Origin: Armatimonadaceae bacterium
GTDB lineage: Bacteria > Armatimonadota > Armatimonadia > Armatimonadales > Armatimonadaceae
DNA length: 17,520 bases
Assembly (NCBI GenBank): GCA_030446525.1
Contig: JAUJNC010000093.1
Coordinates: forward strand, 1 to 17,520
Direction of reading: 5' to 3'
Numbering within the stretch: the stretch's first letter is position 1; the number at the start of each line of letters is the position of its first letter. Shown piece by piece: positions 276 through 14,246 of the stretch. Both the position numbers and the translations under genes were made by a program. Under the pieces are notes generated by a model. That model ran no database searches. It was given only the letters and a program-made list of their open reading frames with translations, and was not told where the DNA came from.

Positions 276-1685
276 TTGCAATCCGCCTTTGTCTGGCGTC
301 GCCGCGCCGAGCAGTATGTAAAGCAAGGCCGCTACGCCGAGGCCGCCGATGCCTACCGGCGCGAAGCCGCTATCCGCCGCCGGGAAGGGGACTTGAACGG
401 CGCGAAGGTCGAAGAGGGGAAGGCGGATCGATGGTCGTCGGAAATCCGCCTTTTCGCCCATCTTCCCGGCTCCTCGCCCACCGCTGCCCCTGCCCGCCTT
501 GCCTGGTGGGAGCCGCCGCATGGCTGCTACCTGGGCGCGTTCCTCGACCGGGACGAGCGGCTGGGGGAACCGTTCCGGGACGAGAACGGGCAGAGCCACC
601 GCGATCCGGCGGCCTTCGCGCGCCTGACCGGCAAGAAGCTCGCTTCGGTCTTCTGCTACCTCGCCTACGGCCGGCGTTTCCCGTCGCGGTGGGTGGCGCG
701 GCTGAGGGCGCAGGGCGTCGCGCCCTACATCGCGTGGGAGCCGAACCGGGGGCTGGACGCCGTCCAGGACGACGCGTACCTGCGGGGCTTCGCCGACGAT
801 GCCGCCCGCGCCGGCTGCCCCGTCTTGCGCTTCGCTTCCGAGATGAACGGCGACTGGACACGCTATGGCGGCGACCCGCTGCGCTACAAGACCAAGTGGG
901 CATCGTCCGGGGCGTGATGGCGCGGCGCGCGCCGAACGTGGCGATGGTCTGGTGTGCGAACGCCATCCCCCGGAAGCCCATCCCCCCTTCTACCCTGGGA
1001 CGCCTGGGTGGACTGGGTCGGCGTCAACTTCTACAGCGTCCCCGTTCTACGACAACAACCCGTCTCGAGCGGGGAGTGGGCCAACCCTGCCGACATGCTC
1101 GCCACGTCTACGACCTGTACGCCGCGCGCAAACCCCTGATGATCTGCGAATGGGGCGCGTCGCACCGGGCCGCCGCGGACGGGCGCGACCGCTCGAGTGG
1201 GCGGCCCTCAACCGCGCAAACCTGCAGCCGCCGCCCTGCCGCGCCTGTACCCGCGCGTCAAGCTGGTTGACATCTTCGACAACGACAACGTACAATACGC
1301 ACAGCCCGGGCGCCAGCTCAACAACTATTCGGTGACCGACTCCGCGCGGGTGCGCGACGCCTACGCCCACGCGGTCGCGCCGGACTATTTCCTGTCCGAC
1401 ATCCCCCCGCGCGATGTGCCGCCCACGCCCATCCGTCCCCTGGCGGATGGCCTGGTGACAGGGCGGGGTATAGTGAAGGTGTCCGCGTGGGCGCGGTGCT
1501 ACGTGGCGCGCCCGACCGTGAGCTACGCGCTCGACGGCCGCGAGGTGTTCCGGTCGGGCACGCCCGGCCCGTACGCCGCCGACCTGGATCTGGGCCGACC
1601 GGGCGCGCACCGGCTCGTCGCCACCGTGCGCGACGACAGGGGGCGCGTGGCCGCCCGTCAAGAGCGGCGAATCATCGTGCGGTGA
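276..1685 (+). pseudogene. Frameshifted GH26-like glycoside hydrolase with helical N-terminus and Ig-like C-terminus
   Basis: The gene opens at TTG 276 with GGAG at 262-265 upstream; no ATG is available before the in-frame TAA at 225. The first 60 residues look like a charged helical, TPR-like segment. The catalytic region follows. ASEMNGDWTRYGGDP (about 837-880) carries the expected acid/base Glu, and ICEWGASH (about 1141-1164) the expected nucleophile Glu of a GH26 (mannanase-like) TIM barrel. The last 80 residues, ending at TGA 1683-1685, resemble a bacterial Ig-like beta domain. The parts are in different frames. I place shifts near 900, 982-990, 1042, 1080, 1104, 1188 and 1233, several at G or C runs. 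The rest of the reading is coherent, so a full gene existed recently or the consensus is faulty here. No signal peptide is visible, which is unusual for a mannanase-like enzyme. The exact family is inferred from motifs. Confidence 0.65.
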
Positions 1686-1721
1686 AACCGAGCACAGCCG
1701 CCGCGAAAGGAACGAGAAACG

Positions 1722-6145: not shown

Positions 6146-7153
6146 TCATGCCTCTATGGCCCCGATGACGGCCTGGACGAACTCGTCCGTCGTGGCCGTG
6201 CCTCCCAGGTCGCGGGTGACGTGTTTGCCTTCACCGAAGACCGAGAAGATGGCTTTTTCCACGCGGTCGGCGGCGTCCGGCTCACCCAGATGGCGCAGCA
6301 TCATGATGGCCGACATCAGCACGGCGGTCGGGTTGGCCAGGCCCTTGCCCGCGATGTCCGGCGCGCTGCCGTGCACGGCCTCGTAGACCACGGCGTCCGC
6401 GCCGACGTTGGCCGAGCCGGTGACGCCCAGGCCGCCGACCAGGCCCGAGACCAGGTCGGAGATGATGTCGCCGTACAGGTTCTCCATCACCATGACCTCG
6501 AAGCGATGCGGCCGGGTGACGAGCTGCATGCAGGTGTTGTCGACGATCATCTCCTCGTACTCGATCTCCTGGAACTCGCGCGCGACGCGCCTGCAGCAGT
6601 CCAGGAACAGGCCGTCTGACAGCTTCATGATGGTGGCCGTGGGGACCGCCGTCACTTTTGTGCGGTCGTGCGCGCGCGCGTACTCGAAGGCGTAGCGCGC
6701 GATCCGCAGGGACGCCGTCTCGGTGATGACCTTGAGCGACTCGACCACGCCGGGCACGACCACGTGCTCGATGCCCGAGTACAGGTCCTCCGAGTTTTCG
6801 CGGACGACAACGATGTCGACGTTCGGGAACGGGGTCTTGATCCCCGGCAGGGAGCGGGCGGGGCGCACGTTGGCGTACAAACCCAGGCGCTTGCGCAGGG
6901 TGACGTTGGGCGAGGTGAAGCCGGCGCCGACCGGCGTGGTGATCGGCCCCTTGAGCCCGACCCGGTTCTTGATGACGGAGTTCAGCACCTCGTCGGGCAG
7001 CGTCGTGCCGTACTTGGTCATCACCTCGGCGCCGGCGTCCCGTGTCTCCCAGACGAACGAGAGGCCCGTGGCCTCCAGCACCTTGACGGCGGCGTCGATC
7101 ACCTCCGGCCCGATGCCGTCGCCGGGGATGAGGGTAATGGTATAGGCGGTCAC
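6146..7153 (-). CDS. Isocitrate/isopropylmalate-type dehydrogenase with the catalytic Lys replaced
   Basis: This 335-residue protein starts at GTG 7153 with GAGGTG (7169-7164) seven bases upstream. It has the full family layout: IPGDGIGPEV near the N-terminus, TSPNVTLRKRLGLYANVRP for substrate binding, VRENSEDLYSGIEH, metal ligands Asp205, Asp229 and Asp233, and HGSAPDIAGKGLANP for NAD. It is closest to NAD-dependent isocitrate dehydrogenases, which oxidise isocitrate to 2-oxoglutarate and CO2; homoisocitrate or isopropylmalate are alternatives. The odd point is residues 171-177, PTATIMK, where the family has HKANIMK or HKATIMK. The catalytic Lys (Lys230 in E. coli Icd) is Thr172, and the His before it is Pro171. 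The protein may be inactive, regulatory or misread. It is the first gene of the operon. Confidence 0.88.
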   Translation of the reverse strand: MTAYTITLIPGDGIGPEVIDAAVKVLEATGLSFVWETRDAGAEVMTKYGTTLPDEVLNSVIKNRVGLKGPITTPVGAGFTSPNVTLRKRLGLYANVRPARSLPGIKTPFPNVDIVVVRENSEDLYSGIEHVVVPGVVESLKVITETASLRIARYAFEYARAHDRTKVTAVPTATIMKLSDGLFLDCCRRVAREFQEIEYEEMIVDNTCMQLVTRPHRFEVMVMENLYGDIISDLVSGLVGGLGVTGSANVGADAVVYEAVHGSAPDIAGKGLANPTAVLMSAIMMLRHLGEPDAADRVEKAIFSVFGEGKHVTRDLGGTATTDEFVQAVIGAIEA

Positions 7154-7298: not shown

Positions 7299-9391
7299 TT
7301 GTGGAACAAGGGCGTCAGGCAAAACCTGTTGGAGGACGCACGTTTGGACTTCCCTGTATTCCCGATGCGCCAGGTGCACCTGGATTTTCATACCTCACCC
7401 GACATCCCCGACGTGGGCGCGGACTGGGATGCGGAGCATTTCGTCCGCACGCTGAAGGAGGCGCGCGTGAACTCGATCACCGTGTTCGCCAAGTGCCACC
7501 ACGGGATGAACTATTACCCGACCAAGATCGGGCCCGTCCACCCGTCCCTCAAGTTCGACCTGCTGGGCGAGCAGATCGAGGCGTGCCACCGCGCGGGGGG
7601 ATCCGCTGCCCGATCTACCTGACCGTCGTCTGGGACGTGTCGGCGGCCGAGCGGCATCCGGAGTGGCGGCAGGTGGGCAAGGACGGCAAGCAGATCGGGC
7701 CCGGCCCCCTCGAGCCGGGCTGGCCCTGGATGTGCGTCATACGGCCCTGCGACGGTACTGATCGCGCAGACCGAGGACCTGATGGGCTCTACGACTGCGA
7801 CGGCTTCTTCTACGACATCCTGATGTATCACGGCGACGGCTGCTGCACCAACTGCCTGCCCCAGATCCGCCGGGCGAGGATGGACCCCGAGAACCCGCTG
7901 CACCGCCGGGGCACAACAACGCCGTCGCCCGCCGCTTCATGGAGTGCGTGCCGGAGGTGGTCCGCGCGAAGCTGCTCAACGCCGGCATCTTCTACAACTC
8001 GCGCTGGGGGCTGCACTTCGCGGGACGAGGCCCGGTACTACTCGCAGGTCGAGATCGAGTCGCTGCCGACCAGGGGCTGGGGCTACGGCTTTTACCCGCT
8101 CTGGTCGCGCTACGGGCGCACGTTCGGGCTGCCGATGCTCGGGATGACGGGGCCGCTTCCACCGTTCCTGGGGCCGACTGGGGGGCCTCGGGCACCCCGA
8201 CGCCCTGCGCTGGGAGTGCGGCGGCATCCTGGCGACGGGCGGCGCCGTCTCGGTCGGCGACCACTCGCAACCCGCGCGGCCGGCTGAACGAGGCCGTCTA
8301 CGACGTGATCGGCGAGGCCTTCCGCGACGTCGAAGCGGTCGAGGATACTGCACCGGGGCCCGGGCCGTCCTGGTCGGGCTGCTCGTCCCCGGAACCCCGA
8401 CGCCGACAAGGCCAACGCGGACGCCAAGGCCGGCAACGTCGAGGGCGCGGCCAAGATGCTCCTCAGCCTGCACCACCAGTTCGACGTCCTCACCGACAGA
8501 AACCTGCCCGACTTCCGCCGGTACGAGGTGCTGGTCCTCGCCGACCGCGCCGTCGCCACGCCGGAGACCGCCCGGCGGCTGCGCGAATACGTCGCCGGCG
8601 GGGGCAAGCTGCTCCTCTCCCACGAGGCGCTGTCGGCGAGGACGGCAGCTTCCTGCTCGCCGACGAGATGGGCGTCGACTACGCCGGGCCGGCCGCCTGC
8701 GTCCCCGACTATTTCCAGATAACCGGCTCGGCCCTCCACACCACGGTCACGCGCCCCGGCTTCGCCTACTCGCTCTACGAGGGCCCTCGCCGCGCGCGTC
8801 GCCCCGCGCGCGGGCACCGAGGTCCTCGCCGACGCGTACGAGACCTACTTCAACCGCACCGGCGAGCACTTCTCTTCCCACGGGTTCACGCCCGTCAAGG
8901 ACAAGGCCGCCTACCCGGCCGTCACGCGCCGCGGCGACGTCATCTACCTCTACGGCCTGTCTTCGCCGCCTACCAGAAGTACGGCAACCTCACCTTCCGC
9001 GCGCTCGTCGGCCGCTGCCTCGACCTGCTGCTGCCCGAACCGCTCGTCGAGACCGACGCCCCCGCCACCTGTGAGGTGTCGGTGATGCGGCAGGGGATCC
9101 GCAGTCGGCGTCCGACCCGCAGTCGGCGTCCGACCGTCGAGATCGTCCACTTCGTCGCACCACGCGCCGGGCGGCGCGCGCCGGGCCACGTCGAGGTGCT
9201 GAGACGCCCGTGCCGCTGCGCGACGTGACCCTGCGCCTGCGCCGGCCCTGGGGCGCGACAAGGTGTATCTGGCCCGCGCCGGCGATTCGTTGCCGTTCAC
9301 CGTCGAGGCGGGCGTCGTCTCGGTCACCATCCCGCGCATCGACACGCACGAGGCAGTCATCTTCGAGGGCGGCGACGCGGATAACAGATGA
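7299..9391 (+). pseudogene. Frameshifted putative glycoside hydrolase (GHL6 / beta-galactosidase-trimerisation-like)
   Basis: The gene starts at TTG 7299 with a strong GAGGAGGT at 7281-7288 and ends at TGA 9389-9391, giving about 695 codons when the frames are joined. The N-terminal half is TIM-barrel-like: FPMRQVHLDFHTSPDIPDVG, ARVNSITVFAKCHHGMNYYP and YDCDGFFYDILMYHGDG resemble the hypothetical glycosyl hydrolase 6 group related to alpha-fucosidase and alpha-amylase folds. The segment at about 8450-8640 (FDVLTDRNLPDFRRYEVLVL, LREYVAGGGKLLLSHEA) is typical of the GH42 trimerisation domain, and the C-terminus is beta-rich. I place frame changes near 7595 (a G6 run), 7755-7790, 7912, 8025, 8147, 8270, 8346, 8390, 8638, 8782, 8960, 9200 and 9255. 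The substrate is unknown. The catalytic residues cannot be fixed from sequence alone. Confidence 0.65.
9100..9135 (+). repeat. Twin 18-bp tandem repeat carrying hairpins, locus 1
   Basis: CGCAGTCGGCGTCCGACC occurs twice in tandem at 9100-9117 and 9118-9135 without mismatch. Each unit contains the inverted repeat GTCGG-CGT-CCGAC. It lies within the C-terminal part of the damaged glycoside hydrolase gene and adds SRRPTR units in the local frame. The architecture matches the pair at 11944-11976. Confidence 0.8.
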
Positions 9392-9404
9392 AAGGAGCGC
9401 CACG

Positions 9405-9773
9405 ATGACACCGGAGATAGACAGGCCCCACGTGACCACGTTCGTCGGTCAGGTCTGCGTGGAGGCGGAGACCCAGGCGGAGGCCGAGGAGACGGCGGTG
9501 AGCTGGGCCATGCGCAAGCTCACCGAGTCGGTGATTGTGACCCCCGACACGGCGGTCGTGCACCCCTGCGAGCGCGGGCAGTTCGCGGTCCCGCTCACCG
9601 GGACCATCAACTTCATCGGCCCGTCCCAGGCGGCGGTGGACGAGAAGGTGCGGACCCTGCTGGAGACCGTCCGAGACGAAGGGCCGAGCCTGGGGGTGAC
9701 CATGGGCCCATTCCGCATCCTCCCGCACACCGACGCGGACGAGCCGAAATCCCCCGAAGAGTGGCTGGTGTGA
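9405..9773 (+). CDS. Hypothetical protein, 122 aa, apparent internal duplication
   Basis: The protein starts at ATG 9405 with AAAGGAG at 9391-9397, overlapping the stop region of the preceding gene, and ends at TGA 9771-9773. I do not recognise the family. The sequence reads as two similar beta-alpha-beta halves: TTFVGQVCVEAETQAEAEET (residues 11-30) followed by a helix and a strand, and PLTGTINFIGPSQAAVDEKV (about 68-87) followed by a helix and a strand. The pairs GQVCVEA / GTINFIG and the helices after them align by eye, suggesting a duplicated small alpha/beta fold, perhaps ferredoxin-like. There is no signal peptide or membrane segment. Its stop overlaps the start of RNase D by one base (TGATG), so the two are translationally coupled, which suggests a shared RNA-related role, but that is inference. 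Confidence 0.8.
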   Translation: MTPEIDRPHVTTFVGQVCVEAETQAEAEETAVSWAMRKLTESVIVTPDTAVVHPCERGQFAVPLTGTINFIGPSQAAVDEKVRTLLETVRDEGPSLGVTMGPFRILPHTDADEPKSPEEWLV

Positions 9774-10957
9774 TGTACGTCGCCGACAGAAACGGGCTCG
9801 ACCGCCTGGCCGGGCGGCTGCGCGAAGAGCTCGCCCGCGACGCGCGCCTCGCCCTGGACACCGAGTTCATCCGCGAGCGCACCTATACGCCGGTCCTGGA
9901 GATCGTGCAGGTGGCCGCCGCGGGCGGCGAGTTCGTGGCCCTCGTGGACGTGCCCGCCGTTGGGGATGGCCTCGGCCCCCTCGGCGAGCTTCTGCTCGAT
10001 CCGTCGATCCTTAAGATAGTTCATTCCGGCGCGCAGGACATGGAGATCCTCCATGCGCGGCTCGGCGCGGCCCCCGCGCCGGTGTATGACACACAGGTGG
10101 CGGCGTCGTTCGCGGGATTCGGGACGCAGGTCGGTTACGGGGCGCTGGTGCAGGCGCTCCTGGGCTTCTCGCTTTCCAAGGAGGAGGGCTTCGCCGACTG
10201 GTCCCGCCGCCCGCTCACGCCGGCCATGATCGCCTCTGCCGAGAACGACGTCCGCTACCTCCCTGCCCTCCACGCCCGGCTGACGGACCTGCTGGCGGAG
10301 CGCGGCCGCACCGCCTGGGCGGAGGAGCAGATGCGGCGCATCCTGGGCGCCGCCCTGGAAGAGATCGCCCCCCGCGACCTTTGGCGGCGCGTCGGCGGGC
10401 GCTCCCCGCTCGACCCCAAAGCGCTGGCGATCCTGCGGGAGCTGGCCTTGTGGCGCGACGAGGAGGCGCGGCGGCGTGACAAGCCCCGGCGCACCGTCCT
10501 CAAGGACGAGGCCCTCGTGGAGATCGCCCGCCGCGCCCCCAAGACCGTGACCGCCGTGCTCGCGCTCCGGGGCGTCCCCCAGAGCCTGACCCCGGCGACC
10601 GCCGAGGCGCTGGCCGAGCGGGTGCGCCGGGGGCTCGCCGTCCCCCCGGAGGAGCGCCCGCGCGTGGAATCCCCCCCGCCGCTCGACGACCAGGGCGCGG
10701 CCCTGGTGGAGCTGCTTTCCGCCGTGGTGCGCGCCCGCGCCGCCGAGGAGAGCCTGCCCCCGTCACTGCTCGCCACGCAGGACGACCTGCGCGCCCTGGC
10801 CGCGAGCCGCGACCGCCTGGATTTCAGCACGCCGCTCTTCTCCGGCTGGCGCGGCGAGCTGATCGGGGGCGCCCTGCGCGACGTGCTCGCCGGCCGCCTC
10901 GCCATCGCCTGGGATATCGAACAAGACCGGCTCGCCTTAACAAATCCGCAGGCATGA
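9773..10957 (+). CDS. rnd: Ribonuclease D (DEDD exonuclease plus HRDC), with the catalytic Tyr replaced
   Basis: This 394-residue protein starts at ATG 9773, overlapping the upstream TGA by one base; a GTG at 9761 is a longer but less likely start. The exonuclease motifs are LALDTEFIRERTYTP (Asp29, Glu31), IVHSGAQDMEIL (Asp89) and ENDVRYLPAL (Asp159). An HRDC domain follows at about 205-285 (LDPKALAILRELALWRDEEA, DKPRRTVLKDEALVEIA). RNase D trims the 3' ends of tRNA and other stable RNAs. In the DEDDy subfamily the last motif is YxxxD. Here the position four before Asp159 is Ser155 (IASAENDV, codon TCT at 10235-10237) where YAENDV or similar is expected. That Tyr positions the attacking water, so activity may be lost or reduced. 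Everything else looks intact. Confidence 0.92.
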   Translation: MYVADRNGLDRLAGRLREELARDARLALDTEFIRERTYTPVLEIVQVAAAGGEFVALVDVPAVGDGLGPLGELLLDPSILKIVHSGAQDMEILHARLGAAPAPVYDTQVAASFAGFGTQVGYGALVQALLGFSLSKEEGFADWSRRPLTPAMIASAENDVRYLPALHARLTDLLAERGRTAWAEEQMRRILGAALEEIAPRDLWRRVGGRSPLDPKALAILRELALWRDEEARRRDKPRRTVLKDEALVEIARRAPKTVTAVLALRGVPQSLTPATAEALAERVRRGLAVPPEERPRVESPPPLDDQGAALVELLSAVVRARAAEESLPPSLLATQDDLRALAASRDRLDFSTPLFSGWRGELIGGALRDVLAGRLAIAWDIEQDRLALTNPQA

Positions 10958-10963
10958 TCCGTT

Positions 10964-10993
10964 TTTACTGCTCAGGAAAGCAAGCGTTATAAT
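10964..10993 (+). promoter_or_regulatory. Candidate sigma70 promoter between RNase D and the GAF gene
   Basis: TTTACT (10964-10969) and a perfect TATAAT (10988-10993) are separated by 18 bp, just past the RNase D stop. The start point would be near 11000, giving a leader of about 100 nt for the GAF gene. No terminator was seen between RNase D and this site. Confidence 0.5.
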
Positions 10994-11088
10994 GGAACGG
11001 TTGAGCCTAGCAGGCCGTGAACCGCAGCGGTTATCTGTTCCGACAGGAATCCGGTTCCGCGTCGTCCGGTAGCCGACTCCGGTGCGGG

Positions 11089-11094
11089 TATAAT
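11089..11094 (+). promoter_or_regulatory. Second -10 box placed for a leaderless transcript
   Basis: GGGTATAAT contains a perfect TATAAT at 11089-11094, only six bases before the ATG at 11101. Transcription from it would begin at or beside the ATG. No convincing -35 lies 17 bp upstream. The same GCGGGTATAATG string occurs at 16529-16540 before the NTPase gene. Confidence 0.45.
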
Positions 11095-11100
11095 GAGGCC

Positions 11101-11580
11101 ATGGTCACGGAGGAACAGGCGCGCGCCCTGCTCGCGGAGATGGACGCGGCGCTCGCCGCGGCGAAGGATCGGGATGCCGCCGTCGCGGCGGCGATGCGCC
11201 TGATTGCCGAACGGCTGCCCCACTACCAATGGGTCGGCGTATACGTGCTGGACGGCGGCATGCTCAACCTGGGCCCGTATGTGGGCGCCCACACCGAGCA
11301 CACGCTCATCCCCGTGGGCCGGGGCGTGTGCGGCACGGCGGTGGCCGAAAAGCGTAACCAGATCGTCGAGGACGTGCGGACGCTCGATAATTACCTCGCC
11401 TGCTCGGTCGAAACCCGCTCGGAGATCGTGGTGCTGATCCGCGACGGGCAGACGGGTCAGATATTGGCGCAGATCGATGCCGACGGTCACGAGGTCGGCG
11501 CCTTCGACGCCTCGGATGAGGCGCTTCTGGAGCAGGTCGCAATCCGGATCGCGCCGCTTTTGACGGAAGAGGCCACATGA
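11101..11580 (+). CDS. GAF-domain protein, free methionine-R-sulfoxide reductase-like
   Basis: This 159-residue single GAF-domain protein starts at ATG 11101 and ends at TGA 11578-11580. GVCGTAVA (Cys77) and YLACSVETRSEIVV (Cys101) match two of the three cysteines of free methionine-R-sulfoxide reductase, with the 24-residue spacing seen between Cys94 and Cys118 of the E. coli enzyme. The third (Cys84 in E. coli) is His67 here (HTLIPVGRGVC), as in many GAF-only relatives. It would reduce free Met-R-sulfoxide with electrons from thioredoxin, or act as a ligand-sensing GAF protein. No good Shine-Dalgarno precedes the ATG, which fits leaderless expression from the -10 box at 11089. It overlaps the MOSC gene by four bases (ATGA). 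Confidence 0.83.
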   Translation: MVTEEQARALLAEMDAALAAAKDRDAAVAAAMRLIAERLPHYQWVGVYVLDGGMLNLGPYVGAHTEHTLIPVGRGVCGTAVAEKRNQIVEDVRTLDNYLACSVETRSEIVVLIRDGQTGQILAQIDADGHEVGAFDASDEALLEQVAIRIAPLLTEEAT

Positions 11581-12191
11581 GCCGCCGCGACGGCGAAACA
11601 GTGATCGGGCGCATCGTGTCGCTGCAGGTCGGCACGCCGCGCGTCGCGACGACGAAGACGGGCCGCGTGTGGGAGAGCGCCATCGTGAAGGGGGAGGTCG
11701 GGGGCCGCGTCGCGCTGTCCCGCACGAACCTCGCCGGCGATGAGCAGGCGGACAAGCGGCACCACGGCGGCCCCGACAAGGCGGTCTGCTGCTACGCGGC
11801 CGAGCATTATCCCGACTGGCGGGATCTGCTCGGGATGCCGATGCCCCACGGCGCGTTCGGCGAGAACTTCACGCTGGAAGGCTTGACTGAGGACGTCGTC
11901 TGCATCGGCGACGTCTTCGCGATCGAGCCCTCCCCGGACGGGTGGTCCGCCCCGGACCGGGGGTCCGCCCCGGACCCAGGGCGAGTAATGCCCTCGTTCA
12001 GGTCAGCCAGGCCCATGGCCCTGCGCCTGCTTGTTTCCCTGCTACAGGACCGCCCCGGCCTGCCGCCGGATTGGAAGGCGGGCCGCACCATTTCATGCCT
12101 GCGCGTGCTGCAGGAGGCAGTCGGCGCCGGCGACGCCCTGACCCTCTGGGGACGCCACCAGCTGGATTCCTGCTGCGCGCCAACGCCGTGA
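11577..12191 (+). CDS. MOSC-domain protein (YiiM-like), damaged in its C-terminal half
   Basis: The ATG at 11577 overlaps the GAF gene stop (ATGA), with GGAAGAGG just upstream. The first 120 residues are a good MOSC domain of the YiiM kind: HHGGPDKAVCCYAAEHYPDW, PHGAFGENFTLEGLTEDVVC and IGDVFAIEP. MOSC proteins act on molybdenum-cofactor-linked or sulfur-transfer chemistry; YiiM-type proteins reduce N-hydroxylated compounds. After residue 122 the frame carries a twin hairpin repeat (11944-11976) in place of normal sequence. The expected ALVQVSQ motif is in another frame (about 11985-12010), and the reading returns with GRTISCLRVLQEAVGAGDAL in the original frame. The natural C-terminus (RANAVMATT, then KHILRRRL) lies past the stop in frame 2, to about 12310. 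The conserved Cys region is disrupted, so function is doubtful. Confidence 0.72.
   Translation: MSRRDGETVIGRIVSLQVGTPRVATTKTGRVWESAIVKGEVGGRVALSRTNLAGDEQADKRHHGGPDKAVCCYAAEHYPDWRDLLGMPMPHGAFGENFTLEGLTEDVVCIGDVFAIEPSPDGWSAPDRGSAPDPGRVMPSFRSARPMALRLLVSLLQDRPGLPPDWKAGRTISCLRVLQEAVGAGDALTLWGRHQLDSCCAPTP
11944..11976 (+). repeat. Twin hairpin repeat with 18-bp period, locus 2
   Basis: GGTCCGCCCCGGACC occurs at 11944-11958 and again at 11962-11976. Each unit is a perfect inverted repeat GGTCCG-CCC-CGGACC. The unit length (15), spacer (3) and period (18) are identical to the pair at 9103-9135, whose unit is AGTCGGCGTCCGACC; the joint consensus is RGTCSGCSYCSGACC. It lies inside the MOSC gene. Confidence 0.8.
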
Positions 12192-12770: not shown

Positions 12771-14246
12771 GTGAAGCTGCCCGAGGGCTTCGCCTTTTAC
12801 GCCCTGTATCCCGAGCAGTACGTCGCCGCGGCCCTGCGCTGGATGGCGGACCACCGGGCGGCGTCCCGCCGCGTCGTCGTCGTGGGCATCCGCAGCATCG
12901 GGACGACGCTGTTGGCCGTCGTGGCTGCGGCCCTGCGGGCGGGCGGCTGGGAGGCGCACCGCCGGACGGTGCGCCCGTCGGGCCACCCCTTCGCGCGGCA
13001 GGCGGACATCCGCGCCGAAGCGCTGGAAGGGGCGACCTGGGGGCTGGTGGTGGACGAAGGGCCCGGGCTTTCCGGGTCGTCCCTGGCGGCGGCGGCCGAG
13101 GCGCTCGCCGCCGCCGGGCTGGACCCCGCCCGCATCAGCTTCCTGCCGGGTCATGCCGGTGAGCCGGGCGGCGCCGCGTCCGGGGGCGTGCGCGCCTGGT
13201 GGTCCCGGGCGCCCCGCTACGTGACCCCGTCCGGCGACCTCCGCTGGGAGGGGCGCTCGCTCCCCGAGAACCTGGCCGCGCGGACACTCGATCTGTGGGG
13301 CGTCCCCGGCCCGGTTCCACAGATCGAAGACCTGGGCGGCGGGCTCTGGCGCAACCTTGTCTACCCTCACCCCGCCCGGTGGCCGGCCGTCTGCGCGCCG
13401 TTCGAGCGGCCCAAGTACCGTTGCGCCGGGCCGGGCGGGGCAGCCGTCCTTTGGAAGTTTGCCGGACTGGCCGGCGCGCCGGGCGGCGCGGGTAGTCTGG
13501 CCGAGGCGGCCCGGGCGCGGCTGGCGGAGCGGGCCCAGGCCGGGTGGACGCCGGCCCCCCTCGGCGTCGCCCTTGGTTTCGTCGCCACGCCCTGGGCCGA
13601 GGGCGCCCCGCTGACCTGCAACGGGGCCGACCCGGCCGTGCTGGCGCACATCGGGCGCTACCTGGTTGCCGTGGCCGGCCCGCCCCTGCCTGCCGGGGAG
13701 CAGGACGCGGCCCTGGGGCGCCTGCGGGAGATGCTCTATTGGAACACCTGGGAAGCCTTGGGAGAGGCCGCGGCGGCGCGCACGCGGCCCTGGGGCGAGG
13801 CGGCCGCGCACTCGGGCCAGGAGGGGGCGCCGCGCACCTACGGCGACGGGCGTCTGGCCCCGCACGAATGGCTGCGCACCCGGTCCGGGCAGCTTCTGAA
13901 GGTCGACGCCGCCGGGCACGACGCCGATCACACGATCATCGGGCGGCAGCCGCTGGCCTGGGACGTCGCGGGGGCGCTGGTCGAGTGGGGTCTGGACGAG
14001 GGGGCCGCGGCCCCCTTGCTGGCCGCCTACCAGGCGGCAGGGGGCCCGGCCCTCCGCCCCGCCCCGCTGCGCTTTTATCGCATGGCATACGCCGCTTTCC
14101 GCACAGGGCAATGCGCGCTTTGCGCCGACATGCTCGCCCACGATCCGGACGAACAGGCCCGGCTCCGGCGCGCCTGGGCGCGGTACCGGAATGAACTGGC
14201 GGGGCTGCTGGAAGATGATGACAGGTCGGCTGCCCGCATGGGTTAG
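12771..14246 (+). CDS. Phosphoribosyltransferase-like plus kinase-like fusion protein, function unknown
   Basis: The open frame gives 491 residues from GTG 12771, but this is probably not the true start (see the broken N-terminal part at 12402-12770). Residues 1-130 look like a type I phosphoribosyltransferase fold: RRVVVVGIRSIGTTLLAVVA, a GHPF motif, and GLVVDEGPGLSGSSLAAAAE (91-110), whose VVDEGPGLSGSS resembles the PRPP-binding loop. Residues of about 140-491 include VYPHPARWPAVCAPFERPKY, APHEWLRTRSGQLLKVDA and the end motif PLAWDVAGALVEWGL, which recalls the C-lobe of aminoglycoside-phosphotransferase-like kinases (Asp in the metal loop and an AWDLA segment). Reaction and substrate are unknown. 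The gene follows the GAF-MOSC pair on the same strand and is convergent with the Gly-rich gene. The domain reading is by eye and needs profile confirmation. Confidence 0.7.
   Translation: MKLPEGFAFYALYPEQYVAAALRWMADHRAASRRVVVVGIRSIGTTLLAVVAAALRAGGWEAHRRTVRPSGHPFARQADIRAEALEGATWGLVVDEGPGLSGSSLAAAAEALAAAGLDPARISFLPGHAGEPGGAASGGVRAWWSRAPRYVTPSGDLRWEGRSLPENLAARTLDLWGVPGPVPQIEDLGGGLWRNLVYPHPARWPAVCAPFERPKYRCAGPGGAAVLWKFAGLAGAPGGAGSLAEAARARLAERAQAGWTPAPLGVALGFVATPWAEGAPLTCNGADPAVLAHIGRYLVAVAGPPLPAGEQDAALGRLREMLYWNTWEALGEAAAARTRPWGEAAAHSGQEGAPRTYGDGRLAPHEWLRTRSGQLLKVDAAGHDADHTIIGRQPLAWDVAGALVEWGLDEGAAAPLLAAYQAAGGPALRPAPLRFYRMAYAAFRTGQCALCADMLAHDPDEQARLRRAWARYRNELAGLLEDDDRSAARMG

What the first reader, a model, noticed from the sequence alone, without database searches (positions are those of the whole stretch)
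9100..11976. Twin hairpin repeats with the same 15+3 architecture in two unrelated genes
AGTCGGCGTCCGACC (9103-9117 and 9121-9135) and GGTCCGCCCCGGACC (11944-11958 and 11962-11976) are both 15-bp inverted repeats, both present as exactly two copies with an 18-bp period, and both align to RGTCSGCSYCSGACC. They lie in different genes with unrelated proteins, and 18 bp keeps the frame. This suggests a small repeat family that spreads or expands by duplication within coding sequence, perhaps a substrate for a REP-type transposase or replication slippage. I do not know a described element of this form.
Basis: seen in the sequence. Interest (0 to 1): 0.72.

Follow-up and report, generated by a model that had tools for sequence, protein, structure and literature searches.

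The report
Tiny DNA hairpins spreading through genes
Two genes in this bacterial DNA carry inserted 18-letter hairpin repeats, and related bacteria carry repeats of the same shape but different sequence inside their own genes, which points to an extremely small repeat that spreads and multiplies within genes.

Summary
The twin hairpins are real (9099-9135, 11932-11976; period 18; none in 200 block shuffles). The window is one contig from an Armatimonadota-like bacterium; its genome is not held. In the glycosidase gene the repeat is an insertion: 38 of 38 homologues have 4-10 residues where the window has 16, +12 against the commonest length, i.e. two units. In the MOSC gene the frame is lost and the exact insert is unclear. 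Relatives carry the same architecture (5-3-5 hairpin plus 5 nt, period 18) with other sequences. G002 has 79 near-copies of its unit (control 5) and exact whole-unit in-frame insertions of 36 and 18 bp in two genes. Arrays in G195, G198 and G199 lie in cinA, scpA, scpB, flhA and flhB. Arm pairs left free by the pattern are complementary in 95 of 96 against 68 of 132 elsewhere. Both strands and three frames are used, so it is kept as DNA, not peptide. REP/RAYT is not supported. Proposed: slippage amplifies units; template switching (inferred) disperses them and keeps arms matched. New variant of a known kind.

The parts
9099..9135 (+). Two head-to-tail 18-bp units CCGCAGTCGGCGTCCGAC (+1 nt), each with the hairpin GTCGG-CGT-CCGAC; inserted in a glycosidase gene whose homologues carry PF14871/PF08532
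   Evidence: 16 aa between MRQ and IVH in the window against 4 (24), 6 (12), 8 (1) or 10 (1) in 38 homologues; relatives
9103..9117 (+). First hairpin copy, AGTCGGCGTCCGACC
9121..9135 (+). Second hairpin copy, identical
   Evidence: as single-stranded DNA the two copies are predicted to fold into one joined hairpin
11932..11976 (+). 2.5 units of an 18-bp repeat (CCCCGGACCGGGGGTCCG), first unit imperfect, inside a MOSC-domain (YiiM-like) gene
   Evidence: spacer GDVF..VQVSQP 77 nt in the window against 6 aa in 97 of 106 matched homologues
11944..11958 (+). Hairpin copy GGTCCG-CCC-CGGACC
   Evidence: predicted to fold as its own hairpin
11962..11976 (+). Second hairpin copy, identical
7939..9228 (+). 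Open frame holding the first array; only its 3' part matches the glycosidase homologues
11577..12191 (+). MOSC-domain gene with the second array; the half after the array is out of frame or altered

Best explanation
The two sites are insertions of an 18-bp hairpin repeat: a hairpin with arms of 5-6 bp and a 3-nt loop plus a linker, 18 bp in all, present as two or more head-to-tail units. Related Armatimonadota carry families of the same architecture, with different sequences in different genomes. Step 1 (products shown, route inferred): a unit, or a few, is copied into a new place, often next to a few bases that match the unit, and adds a whole multiple of 18 bp, so it can sit in a gene without breaking it. 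Step 2 (unit-number differences and shared variants shown; slippage itself inferred): the array then grows or shrinks by whole units. Step 3 (inferred): the two arms are kept complementary because a nascent strand folds back and copies one arm from the other, so arms change together while the hairpin and the 18-bp period stay. The likeliest driver is replication-fork template switching and slippage at hairpins, not a dedicated transposase.
For: Insertion: glycosidase +12 aa against the commonest homologue length; in G002 a DUF1800-like gene +12 aa against 9 of 9 aligned homologues and a GlgB-like gene +6 aa against 11 of 11 aligned. Dispersal: G002 unit 79 matches (<=2 mismatches) against 5 control, as exact tandem pairs in 1 of 291 genomes of the phylum; G026 unit 26 against 5. 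Period: in 1.45 Mb of G002, low-complexity units left out, 16 exact period-18 runs and no more than 3 at any other period except the multiples 36 (7) and 54 (4); 12 of the 16 have arms >=5 bp against 1 of the 24 printed runs of other periods below 40, 36 left out. Unit-number change: copies of one intergenic element in G002 carry 1 unit (L028) or 2 (L078, L082); five adjacent units on C110 share one variant. Structure kept: free arm pairs complementary in 95 of 96 (G002, G195, G198, G199) against 68 of 132 in the other genomes with hits, with G-C and C-G at the same pair in three genomes. DNA level: GEARLP in FlhB and FlhA, ASFARQ in CinA, GSRASA in ScpA and ScpB, i.e. three frames over both strands. 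Flanks: 12 of 17 G002 array edges continue >=4 nt into unit-like sequence on the left, against about 2% of random positions.
Against: Copying the same unit to dozens of unlinked places needs a template in trans, and no data here show how. Spread of one sequence within one genome is what a transposase would give. Flank matches may be partial unit copies: of the 12 edges, three (L041, L085, L119) abut further or partial units and three others are copies of one intergenic element. The variant shared by three units on C112 also occurs 1.9 kb away, so such variants are not always private. Most unit families other than the main G002 one were found by hairpin patterns, which favours hairpins, and the grouping was made after seeing the hits. 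Several genomes are fragmented drafts. The window's own genome was not available, so spread within it rests on two arrays with different units. Samples of G005, G003 and G014 (0.18-0.20 Mb each) show no such family. Predicted folding energy is not unusual for a long G002 array or for the glgB unit.
Confidence: 0.55

Rival explanations
1. A mobile mini-hairpin moved in trans by an HUH (Y1, IS200/IS605- or RAYT-like) transposase: single-stranded hairpins are recognised, excised and inserted 3' of a short target, and twin units serve as left and right ends.
For: Hairpins in the units, whole-unit insertion, short matching bases at junctions, Y1_Tnp genes in 15 of 19 genomes of the class including 4 in G002.
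Against: The main G002 unit (<=4 mismatches) is not within about 670-700 bp of any of the 4 Y1 genes of G002; 18 bp is below any HUH substrate I recall; G003 and G014, in whose 0.2-Mb samples no family was seen, hold more Y1 genes than G002 (7 and 5).
Confidence: 0.2
2. Ordinary local minisatellites: chance 18-bp duplications in GC-rich genes, palindromic by chance or because hairpins promote slippage, without any dispersal.
For: Slippage explains tandem growth; hairpins are known (recalled) to promote slippage; period 18 keeps the frame; 4 of 16 period-18 runs in G002 have arms below 5 bp.
Against: The same unit recurs at dozens of places on many contigs of G002, and a single-unit insertion exists (GlgB-like gene). 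Shuffled units reach 5-bp arms in 7-26% of cases, yet all five units tested there do, four of which, however, came to notice as hairpins.
Confidence: 0.15
3. Protein-level repeats: a hexapeptide is selected in linkers and the DNA palindrome is a by-product.
For: Many arrays lie in loops, linkers or just outside conserved domains; 18 bp is six codons.
Against: Different frames and both strands encode different peptides; some arrays lie in an intergenic-looking element; compensatory arm changes keep base pairing.
Confidence: 0.04
4. Assembly or sequencing artefact.
For: The window has several frameshifted genes; G002 shows exact 54-55-bp tandem duplications that may be an assembler's k-mer artefact.
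Against: Same architecture in five held genomes, as a single pair in a sixth (G011), and in the window; 18 bp is not a usual k-mer length; units differ by base changes within arrays; homologue-based insert lengths in G002 are exact multiples.
Confidence: 0.05

Closest known systems
REP sequences / REPINs with RAYT transposases (PMC3116915, passages read)
   Same: About 20-bp palindromes dispersed in one genome; different sequence classes; hairpins; tandem clusters occur.
   Different: REPs are extragenic, mostly paired as inverted doublets and found beside RAYT genes; here units are direct copies at a fixed 18-bp period, often within genes, and the main G002 unit is not beside Y1 genes of G002.
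Rickettsia palindromic elements (PMC10969869, passages read)
   Same: Palindromic repeats inserted in frame into unrelated protein genes.
   Different: About 150 bp with a conserved peptide; here 18 bp, tandem, several reading frames.
BrickBuilt of Porphyromonas gingivalis, a minisatellite within a MITE (PMC4596501, passages read)
   Same: A tandem unit (23 nt) dispersed at many loci with varying unit number.
   Different: Always intergenic, with leader, tail and terminal inverted repeats; here naked units, often in genes, though G002 also has units within a repeated element (L028, L078, L082).
Yeast mitochondrial GC clusters (PMC4478555, passages read) and Allomyces double-hairpin elements (named in PMC7218506, passages read; original paper not seen)
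   Same: Very small mobile hairpins; rapid sequence change with the stem more conserved (GC42).
   Different: Organellar; GC42 is 42 nt with AG or ACT flanks; no 18-bp tandem rule seen in the passages.
PARCEL palindromic repeat coding sequence (PMC2996958, title and start of abstract in search listings only)
   Same: By its title a palindromic repeat coding sequence in diverse microbes; the abstract speaks of intragenic tandem repeats.
   Different: By its title defined by an amphipathic coded repeat; here the peptide differs between frames.

Membership tests
REP/REPIN with RAYT | Short imperfect palindrome, many copies in one genome | tested here: met
   G002 79 against 5 control; hairpins. 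Not testable in the window's own genome.
REP/REPIN with RAYT | Extragenic location | tested here: not met
   Arrays inside MOSC, glycosidase, DUF1800-like, GlgB-like, flhA, flhB and cinA genes and at the domain edge of scpA and scpB.
REP/REPIN with RAYT | Doublets as inverted repeats | tested here: not met
   Neighbouring units listed are direct copies 18 bp apart.
REP/REPIN with RAYT | Copies beside the RAYT gene | tested here: not met
   0 of 4 Y1_Tnp genes of G002 have the main unit within about 670-700 bp; not tested for other units or genomes.
Rickettsia palindromic element | About 150-bp palindrome fused in frame with a conserved peptide | tested here: not met
   18-bp unit; several frames.
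BrickBuilt-type MITE minisatellite | Leader, tail and terminal inverted repeats around the array | tested here: not met
   In the 24 nt printed on each side of 17 G002 arrays only three copies of one element share flanks; longer flanks were not compared systematically.
Intragenic minisatellite | Head-to-tail units with unit-number variation | tested here: met
   Up to 6 units of the main family (<=3 mismatches); 1 against 2 units in copies of one element.
Known Rfam RNA element | Match at the gathering score | tested here: not met
   0 matches in the window.

The most novel reading that the evidence does not exclude
An 18-bp DNA hairpin, defined by its shape (5-3-5 hairpin plus 5 nt) rather than by its sequence, is the smallest self-spreading repeat yet seen in bacteria. 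Different genomes carry their own versions; it invades conserved genes in frame in exact multiples of six codons, and a dedicated but unidentified single-strand or fork-associated activity copies it and keeps its arms matched.
Probability: 0.3. Interest if true: 0.85.

Novelty: new variant of a known kind. Interest (0 to 1): 0.64.

Why it matters
If dispersal is confirmed, bacteria have a repeat as small as 18 bp that spreads through genes without breaking them, because the unit length and whole-unit insertion keep reading frames open. It would give a natural system for measuring hairpin-driven template switching, and a source of six-residue insertions at loops and domain edges of conserved proteins. 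It would also show that one architecture can persist while its sequence turns over.

Tried and rejected
Searching the window's own genome (none held). The single motif GTCSGNNNCSGAC as a genome-wide family: not consistently enriched (G001 36 against 17 control per strand, G002 37 against 77), so sequence alone does not define it. Twin GTCSG pattern across the phylum: 2 of 291 genomes. Three exact twin patterns in viral contigs: 0 hits each. RAYT association: not supported for the main unit of G002. Rfam: none. Hairpin energy as a criterion: z -3.2 and -2.1 for the two window arrays, but 0.3 for a long G002 array and -0.3 for the single unit in the GlgB-like gene, so folding energy alone does not mark the family; the first window array folds as one joined hairpin, not as two. 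A regular-expression count of glycosidase homologues failed on 18 of 38 proteins and was replaced by an alignment.

Rows left out: 2 of 11 DUF1800 hits outside G002 (their matches start at query residues 31 and 33, at the end of the insert) and 3 of 14 GlgB hits outside G002 (two partial, one weak and without a locus), 13 of 119 MOSC homologues did not match the motif; one search used the 57 plus-strand hits printed, whose listing is truncated, and its grouping was chosen after seeing them (G011, with one clean pair, was counted among the others). Low-complexity units were filtered out. An earlier count said 13 of 16 runs have arms of 5 bp or more; the table gives 12 of 16. An earlier count said 4 control hits; the table shows 3 (G017, G198, G215). 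The exact insert length in the MOSC gene, and in cinA, scpA, scpB, flhA and flhB, was not fixed.

Literature: among the papers listed by the searches (20 of 110; 5 of 5; 9 of 9; 20 of 90; 10 of 45,731; 7 of 7; 10 of 40; 12 of 147; 10 of 458), no title or abstract start describes an 18-bp hairpin tandem family in bacteria or a repeat family of Armatimonadota. Most subscription papers are not held, so this is weak evidence of absence.
Full report
Observation. The window holds two head-to-tail pairs of short hairpins at an 18-bp period. The first, 9099-9135, is two exact units of CCGCAGTCGGCGTCCGAC plus one base; its hairpin has 5-bp arms and a 3-nt loop. The second, 11932-11976, is 2.5 units, with two exact 15-bp hairpins (6-bp arms, 3-nt loop) at 11944 and 11962. 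Exact twin 5-3-5 hairpins occur twice at period 18, at no other period from 13 to 59, and at period 18 never in 200 block shuffles.

What the window is. It is a contig of 17,520 bases (length also seen), 70% G+C, and no whole genome is held for it. Its RNase D-like gene (PF01612 and HRDC) has relatives in Armatimonadota: L001 61%, L002 68% and, among genomes of the same class, G005 70%. The glycosidase and RNase D genes lie close together in G002 and G005 as in the window.

The first repeat is an insertion. The glycosidase homologues (PF14871 and PF08532 listed for many) read MRQ-(few residues)-VVH or similar. In the alignment the window has 16 residues between these points; of 38 homologues 24 have 4, 12 have 6, one 8 and one 10. 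The excess over the commonest length is 12 residues, that is 36 bp, two units. The gene otherwise appears broken by frameshifts.

The second repeat lies in a MOSC-domain gene (PF03473). Between GDVF and VQVSQP the window has 77 nt; 97 of 106 matched homologues have 6 residues, 9 have 7 to 12, and 13 of 119 did not match the motif. The frame is lost (77 is not divisible by 3) and the part after the array is altered, so the exact insert cannot be fixed.

The same thing in a relative: G002 (L002, Armatimonadaceae bacterium YX3bin16). In 1.45 Mb sampled from this genome, period 18 stands out among exact tandem runs after low-complexity units are left out: 16 runs, at most 3 at any other period except the multiples 36 (7) and 54 (4); 12 of the 16 contain a hairpin with arms of 5 bp or more, against 1 of the 24 printed runs at other periods below 40 (36 left out). 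Three of the 16 runs belong to one array. Most are one unit, CGTCGCCTGCGGGGCGAG, which (first 17 bases, up to 2 mismatches) has 79 matches in the genome against 5 for the reversed control and heads the 13-mer count of the sample after a low-complexity filter. As an exact tandem pair it occurs in 1 of 291 genomes of the phylum. A second G002 unit, AGTCGGCCTCCGACCGGG, close to the window's first unit, sits twice in the 3' part of a gene that reads like riboflavin synthase (the name is recalled).

Whole-unit insertion in G002. In a DUF1800-like gene (family name recalled) G002 has exactly 12 extra residues, while 9 of 9 aligned homologues read RPGD directly after (F/Y)G(P/A); in a GlgB-like gene (name recalled) exactly 6 extra residues against 11 of 11 aligned homologues, two of which have a further 3-residue gap nearby. 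These are two units and one unit. Copies of one intergenic-looking element carry one unit (L028) or two (L078, L082), and five adjacent units on C110 share one variant, which points to local growth by whole units. Three units on C112 also share a variant, but a fourth copy of it lies 1.9 kb away.

Other genomes. G026 has GTCGGCGTCCGAC, the window's own core, with another linker: 26 matches against 5 control (up to 2 mismatches), with 2 and 3 tandem units at two places. A looser pattern, SSCGANNNTCGSS twice at 18 bp, hits 36 of 291 genomes; 31 have one hit, but G002 has 29, G199 8, G198 7, G195 4 and G011 2, one of these a clean pair (reversed control: one hit each in G017, G198 and G215; its letters differ, so it is a rough control). 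Arrays in G195, G198 and G199 lie in genes identified by comparison with solved structures: CinA in G195, ScpA in G198, where the array directly precedes the matched domain, FlhA in G199, FlhB in G199, where 23 query residues, partly array, lie between two segments that are adjacent in the structure's chain, and ScpB in G195, directly before the matched domain. In these genes the exact insert length was not measured. The clean pair in G011 is in an open frame I did not identify.

Shape is conserved, sequence is not. The looser pattern leaves two arm pairs free to be complementary or not. In the printed hits of G002, G195, G198 and G199, 95 of 96 such pairs are complementary; in the other genomes 68 of 132, as expected by chance (Fisher p 4e-18, inflated by relatedness and by a grouping made after seeing the hits). 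In G195, G198 and G199 the second pair is G-C in some units and C-G in others. Over the families the arms are GGCGA/TCGCC, GCCGA/TCGGC, GTCGG/CCGAC and GTCCG/CGGAC, with a 3-nt loop and an 18-bp period. The search patterns favour such hairpins; the main G002 family, however, also appears in tandem-repeat censuses that did not ask for hairpins.

DNA, not peptide. In genes confirmed by structure matches the related units are read as GEARLP (FlhB, FlhA), ASFARQ (CinA) and GSRASA (ScpA, ScpB), that is in three frames over both strands. Further readings are AEARLA and GRRASP in genes I name only from recall. So the repeat is kept as DNA.

Junctions. Of 17 G002 array edges, 12 continue at least 4 nt into unit-like sequence on the left, against about 2% of random positions. 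Three of the 12 (L041, L085, L119) abut further or partial units, and three others are copies of one element. In the GlgB-like and DUF1800-like genes the homologues show that part of the match is native sequence (RG, RPGD). This is compatible with insertion at short matches, but not proof.

Mechanism. Shown: insertion in whole units (two genes in G002, and the window's glycosidase against the commonest homologue length), dispersal within G002, unit-number differences, complementary arms. Inferred: that template switching and slippage at hairpins drive it. Fold-back copying of one arm from the other would give compensatory changes without selection (quasi-palindrome correction, recalled). A Y1/HUH transposase is the main rival; Y1_Tnp genes occur in 15 of 19 genomes of the class, but none of the four in G002 has the main unit within about 670-700 bp.

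Known relatives. REPINs (PMC3116915), Rickettsia palindromic elements (PMC10969869), BrickBuilt (PMC4596501) and mitochondrial GC clusters (PMC4478555), of which I read passages, each share features; the first three fail features tested here, and GC clusters were compared only in description. The combination of an 18-bp hairpin unit, direct tandem copies, whole-unit insertion in genes and differing sequence between genomes did not appear among the papers listed by my searches. I file it as a new variant of small interspersed palindromic repeats.

Limits. One contig for the window; fragmented drafts for several relatives; G002 also shows exact 54-55-bp tandem duplications, perhaps assembly artefacts. 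Samples of G005, G003 and G014 (0.18-0.20 Mb each) show no such family, so the distribution looks patchy. Predicted folding energy is unusual for the two window arrays but not for a long G002 array or the GlgB-like unit.

Noticed in passing
window 276-1700 and 7301-9395: Two glycosidase-like genes (first one by recall only) appear split over several frames, while the RNase D-like and sulfatase genes and the open frames 6146-7153 and 12771-14246 are uninterrupted; pseudogenes or sequencing errors.
   Followed up: partly
L002 10473-10583; L038 18870-18978; L039 14816-14926; L053 12117-12224: Exact tandem duplications of 54-55 bp in the G002 assembly; the one in L002 lies in the RNase D gene, which is split there. 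They may be assembler k-mer artefacts.
   Followed up: no
L028 4214, L078 15159, L082 14602: A repeated element (CCCCCGCCCCCAATAATGGG...GGGGGGTGCC) in G002 carries one or two of the 18-bp units; it may be a source or a frequent target.
   Followed up: partly
L117 17186-17202: A unit array lies inside a CCCTCTCCC...GGGAGAGGG inverted repeat in G002.
   Followed up: no
G002 sample: Other frequent words, CCGTTCCTTTAGGGACGGGG and AAGGAACGGGCTGTT, stand out in the 13-mer count.
   Followed up: no
L224 (G198): About eight tandem units in one open frame (ASFARK/ASFARQ and the like); the first three carry a C-to-T change in one arm.
   Followed up: no
L222 (G195) and L227 (G199); L225 (G198) and L231 (G199): What look like the same genes (ScpB; FlhA C-terminal part) carry arrays at similar positions in two genomes, with differing unit numbers.
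   Followed up: no
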